From Acidobacteriaceae bacterium (GTDB lineage: Bacteria > Acidobacteriota > Terriglobia > Bryobacterales > Bryobacteraceae): a stretch of DNA of 53,132 nucleotides. The position numbers and the translations under genes are program-made. How positions within the stretch are numbered: position 1 is the stretch's first letter; every line of letters starts with the position of its first letter. This document shows, in pieces, positions 30,921 through 32,511 of the stretch. The DNA lies in the NCBI GenBank assembly GCA_019244055.1, contig JAFATG010000340.1:1-53132 (forward strand). The letters run 5' to 3'. The notes under the pieces are model-generated. The model ran no database searches. It worked only from the letters and a program-made list of their open reading frames with translations, and was not told where the DNA came from.

Positions 30921-31430
30921 TTACTGCGGAGGAAGCACGTCCGAAAGTGGCAGCTCTACACCGAGCGAGCGCGCTCTTAAGACTCCGTCTCGAACCTCCA
31001 GCGGCGGCTCGATTTCATCGAACACCCACGCCCGACGGTCATACGGATCTATGATCCAGACACACGGCACGCCCATTCCTTGGTAATCGGCGATTGAAGC
31101 GTGAACCCGATTCCACCGGTCGTCCGGCGAGAGCACCTCTACGCACAGCAACGGTGCCTCGGCTGTCACCTCTTCCAGTTTCAAGACCACACAGACATCA
31201 GGGATCCGTACGCGTGATTGAGATACACGAACCCGCTGCTCCGGCAAAACGAGCTTTCCGTTGGACTCGACGAGATCGCCCAGCCGTCGATACACCTTGC
31301 CTTGCGTGTACGAATGTTTTCCTTTCCCCACGTTGCGCTCCAGAATTGTGCCATCAATGTACTCGCAGTCGGGCGAGTACTCGGTATGCAAATATTCCTC
31401 GAGCGAAACGAGAGCGGGTATCGTTGCCAT
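30921..31430 (-). CDS. Uma2-family (DUF820) endonuclease-like protein, copy A
   Basis: A 169-residue Uma2 protein with the PD-(D/E)XK-like core: YIDGTILERN, VRIPDVCVV (Asp), PLLCVEVLSPDDRWNRV (Glu) and GVPCVWIIDP. The family is widespread in cyanobacteria and some soil bacteria, and its biological role is not established. It is a tandem copy of the gene at 31459-31968, near-identical except for residues 44-63. Its start and leader, including ACAGGAGAATTGAAAGAGAA, duplicate the corresponding stretch upstream of copy B. Confidence 0.85.
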   Translation of the reverse strand: MATIPALVSLEEYLHTEYSPDCEYIDGTILERNVGKGKHSYTQGKVYRRLGDLVESNGKLVLPEQRVRVSQSRVRIPDVCVVLKLEEVTAEAPLLCVEVLSPDDRWNRVHASIADYQGMGVPCVWIIDPYDRRAWVFDEIEPPLEVRDGVLRARSLGVELPLSDVLPPQ

Positions 31431-31458
31431 GCTTCTCTTTCAATTCTCCTGTATTCCC

Positions 31459-31968
31459 TCACTCCGGAGGAAGCACGTCCGAAAGCGGCAGCTCTACAGA
31501 CAGCGAGCGCGCCCTTAGGACTCCGTCTCGAACCTCCGACGGCGGTTCGACTTCATCGAACACCCAAGCGCGGCGTTCATACGGATCAACTACCCAGACA
31601 CACGGCACGCCCATGGCTTGGTAATCCGCAATCGAAGCGTGGACCCGGTTCCACCGGTCATCCGGCGACAGCACCTCTACGCACAGTAGCGGTGCCTTGG
31701 TAGTTACCTCTTCCAGTTTCGACACTACACAAACGTCAGGAATCCTCACGCGTGATTCCGAGACTCGCGTCCGTTGTTCCACCAGCACAACCTTTCCTGG
31801 GGCTGACAGTATCTGGCGAAGCCGCACCAGCAACTCCGATTGCGTGTACGAATGTTTTCCTTTCCCCACGTTGCGCTCCACAATCGTGCCATCAATGTAC
31901 TCGCAATCGGGCGAGTACTCGGTATGCAAATATTCCTCGAGCGAAACAATAGCGGGTACGGTTGCCAT
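31459..31968 (-). CDS. Uma2-family (DUF820) endonuclease-like protein, copy B
   Basis: A 169-residue Uma2 protein, the upstream member of the tandem pair. The nuclease-like core residues are the same as in copy A (VRIPDVCVV, CVEVLSPDDRWNRV, GVPCVWVVDP). Compared with copy A the two align over the whole length; changes are scattered except in residues 44-63 (SELLVRLRQIL against GKVYRRLGDLV), where they look unrelated. The ATG sits 9 bases downstream of the DUF488 stop, so DUF488, copy B and copy A are likely one transcript. Confidence 0.85.
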   Translation of the reverse strand: MATVPAIVSLEEYLHTEYSPDCEYIDGTIVERNVGKGKHSYTQSELLVRLRQILSAPGKVVLVEQRTRVSESRVRIPDVCVVSKLEEVTTKAPLLCVEVLSPDDRWNRVHASIADYQAMGVPCVWVVDPYERRAWVFDEVEPPSEVRDGVLRARSLSVELPLSDVLPPE

Positions 31969-31977
31969 ACTTCTCTT

Positions 31978-32511
31978 TCAATTCTCCTGTATTTGCTCGG
32001 CCGGCGGATATGTAATCCGCAGTCCGTCAACTCTTGCCCAGGGTGTCAGCGCATGCGCTTTCGCCTTCCGCTCACTCAGCACATCGATTACCTCGATGCC
32101 GCGAACCGCCAGCGCATCCCCAATCAAAGATCGATGGCATCGCCACGGCACTGCTTCGGCGCACATGATCGCGGTCGCATATTCCATCGCAAGTGCTATC
32201 AAGTTATTCAGACCCGTCTGGAATTGTTCCGTTTGCATGTAGTCGGCGTAGCCGCGAAACGAATCATTCCTCCAACCGGAGTTCGGTGAATCCTTTCGCG
32301 GATGCCGGAGTCCTCCCAACTCGGCTAAGTGCGCGTATCCGATACCCTGATCCTCCAGTGTGCTCGCCAACTTCTCCCTTTCAAACTGGGGATTGCGCCG
32401 GGACCGCGGAACCGTTCGGATATCAGCCAGCATCTGAATTCCAAACGCCTTCAAAATCCGCAAGAATTCATCGGCCGTTCGCGTTGAATGCCCAATTGTG
32501 AAAACTGTCAA
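31978..32511 (-). CDS. DUF488-family protein
   Basis: A 177-residue DUF488 protein. Diagnostic segments are FTIGHSTRTADEFLRIL at the start, LADIRTVPRSRRNPQFE, LGGLRHP and the late C-x6-CHR pattern in MCAEAVPWRCHRSLI. The family is widespread and of unknown function; the conserved Cys and His suggest metal or nucleic-acid chemistry. It heads the minus-strand unit with the two Uma2 genes. Divergent from the YCII gene by a 122-base gap. Confidence 0.85.
   Translation of the reverse strand: MTVFTIGHSTRTADEFLRILKAFGIQMLADIRTVPRSRRNPQFEREKLASTLEDQGIGYAHLAELGGLRHPRKDSPNSGWRNDSFRGYADYMQTEQFQTGLNNLIALAMEYATAIMCAEAVPWRCHRSLIGDALAVRGIEVIDVLSERKAKAHALTPWARVDGLRITYPPAEQIQEN

What the first reader, a model, noticed from the sequence alone, without database searches (positions are those of the whole stretch)
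30921..32000. Tandem Uma2 duplication with one sharply divergent internal block
The two genes are offset by 538 bases and near-identical over most of their length, including the leader. The leader of copy A repeats the last codons of DUF488 (ACAGGAGAATTGA), so the unit was copied from within the DUF488 end. Yet residues 44-63 differ almost completely (SELLVRLRQIL against GKVYRRLGDLV). Scattered drift does not produce that; recombination with a third allele or strong diversifying selection on a recognition surface would.
Basis: seen in the sequence. Interest (0 to 1): 0.6.

Follow-up and report, generated by a model that had tools for sequence, protein, structure and literature searches.

The report
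Twin nuclease genes with swapped helix
Two neighbouring copies of a widespread but uncharacterised bacterial nuclease-like gene (Uma2) match along most of their length but carry very different versions of one short segment, and related genes elsewhere repeatedly show the same pattern, which points to an exchangeable recognition patch that can now be tested.

Summary
Copies A (30921-31430, -) and B (31459-31968, -) are tandem Uma2/DUF820 genes with a 538-base repeat unit. Residues 44-63 differ at 32 of 60 bases, against 7 of 129 upstream and 41 of 285 in codons 76-170.

The A/B contrast has two sources: the 5' part looks recently homogenised, and the block is the family's most variable 20-residue window. 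It covers the end of helix 37-53, a loop and a strand; variability follows one helical face.

The pattern recurs: in 14 of 21 non-identical tandem pairs with flank identity of at least 0.65 the least similar 20-residue window starts at positions 38-50. In pair L246, 50 of 73 block bases differ but only 2 of the other 449 compared. A cyanobacterial plasmid pair shows it too. Close non-tandem relatives mostly conserve the block.

Best reading: an exchangeable specificity or interface patch that separates sister proteins. Block exchange is well supported in several pairs; for A/B it is consistent but unproven, and no donor was found. Function is inferred. A and B also lack the basic residue at the proposed relocated catalytic position.

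The parts
30921..31430 (-). Uma2 copy A (169 aa), downstream member of the tandem pair
   Evidence: ORF; PF05685 81.3 bits against cut-off 27
31459..31968 (-). Uma2 copy B (169 aa), upstream member
   Evidence: ORF; PF05685 86.8 bits; AlphaFold2 pLDDT 94.7; closest solved fold 3OT2, Z 20.9
31242..31301 (-). divergent block of copy A, codons 44-63 (GKVYRRLGDLVESNGKLVLP)
   Evidence: 32 of 60 nt differ from copy B; family hypervariable window
31780..31839 (-). divergent block of copy B, codons 44-63 (SELLVRLRQILSAPGKVVLV): end of helix 37-53, loop, strand 60-63
31432..31455 (-). 24-base leader of copy A, identical to that of copy B, whose counterpart overlaps the end of DUF488; holds an AGGAG motif
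31970..31993 (-). 24-base leader of copy B, overlapping the last codons of DUF488
31978..32511 (-). DUF488 ORF immediately upstream in the same orientation; a DUF488 gene also precedes the Uma2 relative in L013
   Evidence: PF04343 E 1.8e-34; L013 ORFs and their Pfam matches
31633..31635 (-). codon 112 of copy B: Ser at the position of the relocated catalytic Lys proposed for the family
   Evidence: K or R in 161 of 166 aligned members
31095..31097 (-). codon 112 of copy A: Ser at the same position

Best explanation
A and B are sister Uma2 (DUF820, PD-(D/E)XK-fold) proteins whose 538-base repeat unit starts in the tail of DUF488, most simply by tandem duplication. Residues about 42-64 form an exchangeable patch: one face of helix 37-53 after near-invariant H39/Q43, a loop, and the first strand up to conserved E64. 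SHOWN: the block is the family's hypervariable segment; its variability follows one helical face; in several pairs it differs as a discrete unit, synonymous sites included, while the adjoining sequence stays similar or identical; close non-tandem relatives mostly keep it. INFERRED: the variable face is exposed; recombination with divergent alleles, plus gene conversion of the flanks, replaces or preserves the block; and selection favours sister copies with different blocks because the patch sets what the protein pairs with or recognises (its own dimer partner, another protein, or nucleic acid), so that the two products act separately instead of cross-reacting. For A and B a binding role may matter more than cleavage, since both lack the basic residue at the proposed relocated catalytic position.
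For: F = flank identity, K = block identity. Hypervariability: the window starting at 44 ranks first for mean entropy in alignments of 82 (A left out of the count) and 186 domains. Helical face: entropy and tandem-pair differences over residues 37-53 both peak at 100 degrees per residue (permutation p=0.0004 and 0.002); position 44 differs in 16 of 16 tandem pairs. Recurrence: K<F in 26 of 28 tandem pairs. Tandem against control: 12 tandem and 59 disjoint control pairs, K given F p=0.003, block pN given flank pN p=2e-4; a second set, 9 against 15, p=0.014. Discrete replacement: L246 block 14/16 synonymous sites differ, flanks (residues 8-43 and 64-138) 2 of about 87, p=2e-13, and 50 of 73 against 2 of 449 bases; L165/L166 15/15 against 21/78 (p=7e-8); L186 8/13 against 17/84 (p=0.005). 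Polarity: G104 copy 2 and its close relatives in G106 and G103 keep the block (pN 0.04 and 0.02) while copy 3 has pN 0.56 to copy 2; the G141 relative matches one L097 copy (pN 0.10) and not the other (0.47). Other phylum: Pseudanabaena plasmids L294/L296, block pS 0.73 and pN 0.41 against 0.23 and 0.03 in the 3' part. A/B quartet discordance p=0.0003.
Against: For A/B alone the block is not older than the 3' flank at synonymous sites (p=0.55) and its 3' edge is gradual. No donor block was found. The synonymous excess of block over pooled flanks reaches p<0.05 in 5 of the 12 tandem pairs tested for it: L097 and L186 but not A/B; L246, L251 and L220 but not L250, L247, L252, L249, L256 or L248. 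Non-tandem pairs show swaps too (L165/L166; L294/L296), so tandem arrangement is not required. In 7 of 21 pairs the least similar window starts outside 38-50; five of those start at 34-37, L220 at 8 and L197 at 113. The tandem pairs are partly homologous to one another and some control pairs contain a member of a tandem pair, so p values are indicative. Most genomes are multi-contig drafts, and assemblers may collapse fully identical tandem copies, which would inflate the tandem contrast. Nothing here tests binding, dimerisation, exposure or cleavage.
Confidence: 0.6

Rival explanations
1. Passive barrier: gene conversion keeps homogenising the flanks of tandem copies but cannot cross a segment that is already too divergent, so the block simply retains old divergence. 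No selection for difference is needed.
For: Flank pS is lower than block pS in tandem pairs (mean 0.44 against 0.60) but not in controls (0.61 against 0.62). The 5' part of A/B looks recently converted, with 2 of 23 synonymous differences in codons 8-43. A/B quartet discordance fits old blocks in young flanks.
Against: It does not explain how blocks first became so different, nor swaps between non-tandem relatives (L165/L166; L294/L296). In G104 two relatives of copy 2 keep the block at the same flank divergence, although an old third copy lost elsewhere is not excluded.
Confidence: 0.25
2. Relaxed constraint: the helix end and loop tolerate almost anything, so the block drifts fast.
For: Highest entropy window in the family, with gaps at 51-57 in some members. 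Among distant controls (F<0.80, 32 pairs) block pN/pS is 0.56, not far below the 0.71 of the 9 tandem pairs in that range.
Against: Close relatives conserve the block: in 14 control pairs with F 0.85-0.95 summed block pN/pS is 0.27, against 0.91 in the 3 tandem pairs with F of at least 0.85. Drift cannot change 14 of 16 synonymous sites in the block with almost none outside it. Positions 42, 46 and 50 stay 92-100% hydrophobic.
Confidence: 0.1
3. Artefact: misassembly, strain mixing, or compensating frameshifts.
For: The window and most relatives come from multi-contig draft assemblies; one copy of the L246 pair and one of the L250 pair reach a contig end.
Against: Equal block lengths and no alternative-frame match in A/B. 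The pattern is seen inside contigs in several genomes and in two plasmids recorded as complete sequences of named strains.
Confidence: 0.04
4. Targeted hypermutation of the block, as in diversity-generating retroelements.
For: A short variable stretch in a fixed scaffold.
Against: Changes are not adenine-biased: 27 of 48 differences in L246 and 22 of 32 in A/B involve no A on either side. No template-like copy was found in what was searched. A nearby reverse transcriptase was not searched for.
Confidence: 0.01

Closest known systems
Uma2 / DUF820 / COG4636 (PF05685), PD-(D/E)XK fold; structures 1WDJ, 3OT2, 6OKH, 9Y1L
   Same: Pfam match, fold, conserved H39, D78, E98; large paralog expansions and cassettes of paralogous genes reported before (passages of PMC551604, PMC2701414, PMC1274311)
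   Different: An exchangeable hypervariable block is not described in the passages read; A and B carry Ser at the relocated catalytic Lys position
Target-recognition-domain exchange in Type I restriction specificity subunits (HsdS); recalled, not tested
   Same: Conserved scaffold with a recombining, very different specificity segment
   Different: Here one 20-25 residue helix-loop-strand in a small single-domain protein, and no specificity role is shown
Interface divergence that keeps paralogous partners apart (toxin-antitoxin and signalling paralogs; recalled)
   Same: Sister genes differ mainly on one patch
   Different: No partner or dimer interface is known for Uma2 from these calls
PADLOC candidate models PDC-S03 (matched by Uma2) and PDC-M45B (matched by DUF488)
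   Same: A and B match PDC-S03, the DUF488 protein matches PDC-M45B
   Different: The library lists known and candidate defence proteins; no defence assay for either was seen in these calls

Membership tests
Uma2 (PF05685) | profile score above the curated cut-off | tested here: met
   81.3 and 86.8 bits against 27
Uma2 (PF05685) | PD-(D/E)XK fold as in solved Uma2 proteins | tested here: met
   model of B against 3OT2 Z 20.9, 6OKH 20.0, 1WDJ 19.5; copy A was not modelled separately
Uma2 (PF05685) | conserved His, PD and Glu of the proposed active site | tested here: met
   H39, P77-D78, E98 in both copies; role of these residues from passages of PMC551604
Catalytically active Uma2 nuclease | Lys relocated to the following helix (passages of PMC551604), or Arg there | tested here: not met
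   Ser112 in A and B; K 43 and R 118 of 166 members; that column 112 is the relocated Lys rests on the 1WDJ alignment
Catalytically active Uma2 nuclease | nucleic-acid cleavage | not testable with these tools
   needs biochemistry
PADLOC PDC-S03 candidate defence | profile match | tested here: inconclusive
   E 9.6e-17 and 6.4e-19, but no curated cut-off is given, so the match may show only that A and B are Uma2 proteins
PADLOC PDC-S03 candidate defence | protection against phage | not testable with these tools
   needs a plaque assay
Diversity-generating retroelement target | adenine-biased changes against a template | tested here: not met
   22 of 32 A/B differences and 27 of 48 L246 differences lack A
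Diversity-generating retroelement target | adjacent reverse transcriptase and template repeat | not tested
   no dedicated search was made

The most novel reading that the evidence does not exclude
Uma2 proteins carry a 20-25 residue helix-loop-strand specificity cassette that is exchanged as a unit between alleles and paralogs in at least two phyla, giving each sister protein its own identity (partner or target), and some such proteins, including A and B, may have given up cleavage and work as binders.
Probability: 0.4. Interest if true: 0.8.

Novelty: new variant of a known kind. Interest (0 to 1): 0.6.

Why it matters
Uma2 is an expanded family whose function was called unknown or only predicted in the passages seen. 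A short segment that is swapped while the rest is kept gives a concrete pointer to the surface that may define what each protein acts on. It makes the question 'what does Uma2 recognise?' testable with block-swapped chimeras of natural pairs such as A/B or L246.

Tried and rejected
Donor search: no close source for the blocks of A, B, L186, L165, L166 or L097 among 286 Uma2 ORF entries, duplicates included. For L246 a 301-base query was run in the 3 genomes of its genus and the block letters against all loci then held; no further copy of either block turned up. The weak likeness of one L246 block to L263/L264 (43-52%, E 0.04-0.08 in a small database) was not pursued. Dimer interface: the structure tool gave no coordinates and folds one chain, so exposure and contacts were inferred from helical periodicity only. 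A fused read-through of B and A was considered and not run. Frameshift and adenine-biased hypermutation were rejected. NCBIfam gave no family for A, B or the DUF488 protein. Cyanobacterial plasmids: 15 Uma2 matches on 11 of the 13 records hit, with no adjacent same-strand pair and one divergent pair on W06. The last lines print A/B site counts under wrong labels; the correct values are.

Rows dropped before counts: one search left out two partial domains; keep only domains covering most of the profile, and unique cores; one search used 12 of 17 tandem pairs (one identical pair and four with flank identity below 0.68 left out); one search used 16 of 17; one search used 9 of 11 new tandem pairs and 15 of 16 listed controls (flank identity limits 0.65 and 0.995); one search used 21 of 28 for the window position. 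sums rows that I retyped from the outputs.

Full report
WHAT IS THERE. The minus strand carries DUF488 (31978-32511), Uma2 copy B (31459-31968) and Uma2 copy A (30921-31430) in one orientation with gaps of 9 and 28 bases. Two direct-repeat families with a spacing of 538 cover the two copies. A 24-base leader one base before each start codon is identical, and in front of B it includes the end of the DUF488 ORF. The window is contig C267 of a 6.2 Mb genome in 372 contigs with 11 Uma2 matches. The one named relative found by sequence, L060 (43% identity), is a Bryobacteraceae assembly, so the window may be from that family; this is an inference.

THE A/B CONTRAST. Differences are 7/129 nt in codons 1-43, 32/60 in 44-63, 11/36 in 64-75 and 41/285 beyond. 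The 5' part is unusually similar at synonymous sites (2/23 in codons 8-43), so it was probably homogenised recently. The block differs from the 5' flank at synonymous sites (p=0.0015) but not from the 3' flank (p=0.55). What singles the block out from the 3' flank is protein change: pN 0.52 against 0.05-0.11. Equal lengths and the alternative-frame comparison speak against a frameshift. A quartet with the nearest relatives from two other genomes of the genus, L013 and L014, is discordant. In the flanks 31 informative sites join A with B, 4 join A with L013 and 8 join A with L014; in codons 44-76 the counts are 6, 10 and 1. Fisher on the first two topologies gives p=0.0003. This is short sequence and parallel change cannot be excluded.

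THE BLOCK IN THE FAMILY. In an alignment of 82 Uma2 domains, 44-63 is the 20-residue window with the highest mean entropy (2.84 bits against 1.70 for residues 6-43), and it stays first with 186 domains. The AlphaFold2 model of B (63 sequences, mean pLDDT 94.7) puts a helix at 37-53 and a strand at 60-63, and the fold matches solved Uma2 proteins. Within the helix one side is conserved (H39, Q43, and hydrophobic residues at 42, 46, 49 and 50 in 91-100% of members), while 37, 41, 44, 47, 48, 51 and 52 vary widely; 40 is limited mostly to Ser, Ala and Gly but differs in 12 of 16 tandem pairs. The variability peaks at 100 degrees per residue (p=0.0004 for entropy, 0.002 for tandem differences). 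Positions 47 and 48 are hydrophobic in 68% and 63% of members although variable, which leans towards a protein contact; that is an inference.

RECURRENCE IN TANDEM PAIRS. Among 17 tandem pairs in the first set of loci, the 12 with flank identity 0.68-0.995 have lower block identity than 59 disjoint control pairs at the same flank identity (p=0.003), and higher block pN for given flank pN (p=2e-4) or flank pS (p=3e-6); block pS for given flank pS is not significantly higher (p=0.09). The pairs include homologs and some controls contain a member of a tandem pair, so the p values are indicative. I then picked 11 further tandem pairs by spacing alone, eight of them from other families of the phylum and three from genomes of this family already searched. 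Nine had flank identity 0.65-0.995; their flank-minus-block gap exceeds that of 15 controls (p=0.014). Over all 28 pairs the block is less similar than the flanks in 26; the exceptions are an identical pair (L199) and L197. In 14 of 21 pairs the least similar window starts at 38-50.

BLOCKS BEHAVE AS UNITS. In L246 (G271) 522 bases of the two copies can be compared: 50 of 73 differ in one stretch, and 2 of the other 449, both near the 3' end (DNA view of part of it). In the counted region 14 of 16 synonymous sites differ in the block and 2 of about 87 outside it, both in codons 36-43 next to the block (p=2e-13). Relatives of this gene, L287 and L290, carry other blocks in a conserved frame; L287 is 36-44% identical to the two L246 blocks. 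In L165/L166, from two genomes of one genus, 15 of 15 synonymous block sites differ against 21 of 78 in the flanks (p=7e-8). In G104 a triplet polarises the change: copy 2 and its close relatives in G106 and G103 share the block, while copy 3, equally close in its flanks, has a very different one (p=0.005). In another phylum, two Pseudanabaena plasmids recorded as complete sequences (L294, L296) encode Uma2 proteins that differ mainly in the block and at the two ends (5' part pS 0.43, pN 0.10; block 0.73, 0.41; 3' part 0.23, 0.03). Four other cyanobacterial relatives (L298-L301) have nearly the same block as one another, so swapping is not universal.

SELECTION OR NOT. Close non-tandem pairs mostly conserve the block: for the 14 control pairs with flank identity 0.85-0.95, summed block pN over pS is 0.27, against 0.91 in the 3 tandem pairs with at least 0.85. 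Below 0.80 the contrast is weak: 0.56 in 32 controls and 0.71 in 9 tandem pairs. The segment therefore looks constrained at short range and changes abruptly in particular events. This favours exchange with functional meaning over loose drift, but a passive model, in which conversion homogenises flanks and cannot cross a divergent block, is not excluded. Assemblers may also collapse tandem copies that are fully identical, which would favour divergent pairs in the sample.

HOW IT MAY WORK. The most likely reading is that the patch sets what each protein contacts and that sister copies are kept apart by different patches. Both copies have Ser at position 112, where K or R stands in 161 of 166 members. 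In Tt1808 (1WDJ) the paper places the relocated catalytic Lys in the following helix (passages of PMC551604), and the 1WDJ alignment puts a Lys in this column. Four of the five exceptions are A, B, L014 and L015, so this small group may bind without cutting. A DUF488 gene also precedes the Uma2 relative in L013. PADLOC models match both gene types; what the letters PDC stand for is recalled.

LITERATURE. Passages of six papers were read by term search: PMC551604, PMC2701414, PMC1274311, PMC4963859, PMC1913061 and PMC8649781; the others were seen only as listings. 'Hypervariable' and 'dimer' do not occur in the main text of PMC551604. Searches for Uma2, DUF820, COG4636, PF05685 and structure codes (two of these lists were cut, at 30 of 34 and 30 of 111) showed no title or abstract start about block exchange in Uma2. 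The library is open-access only; subscription papers are not covered.

VERDICT. Most likely a real and recurring feature of a known family: a hypervariable, exchangeable segment. The exchange is well supported in several pairs, plausible but not proven for A/B, and its function is open and testable.

Noticed in passing
window 31095-31097 and 31633-31635 (codon 112 of A and B): Ser replaces the basic residue at the proposed relocated catalytic position; L014 has Ser and L015 Ala there, while L013 keeps Lys.
   Followed up: partly
L199 (G156:C141:72400-75000): Two tandem Uma2 copies with identical protein over residues 8-138, block included, and no synonymous difference there; a very recent duplication or an assembly duplicate.
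   Followed up: no
L202 (G104:C77:7000-11000): Three Uma2 genes in a row; the third carries a different block, and no third tandem copy was seen in the stretches fetched from G103 and G106.
   Followed up: partly
G076 and G080: 30 and 27 Uma2 matches per genome, a very large expansion in draft genomes of 6-7 Mb.
   Followed up: no
L013 and window 31978-32511: DUF488 directly upstream of Uma2 in two genomes of the genus; the window's Uma2 and DUF488 proteins match PADLOC models (the L013 proteins were not scanned there).
   Followed up: partly
L297 (Nostoc sp. C057 plasmid p057_A): Two Uma2 genes in divergent orientation about 290 bases apart.
   Followed up: no
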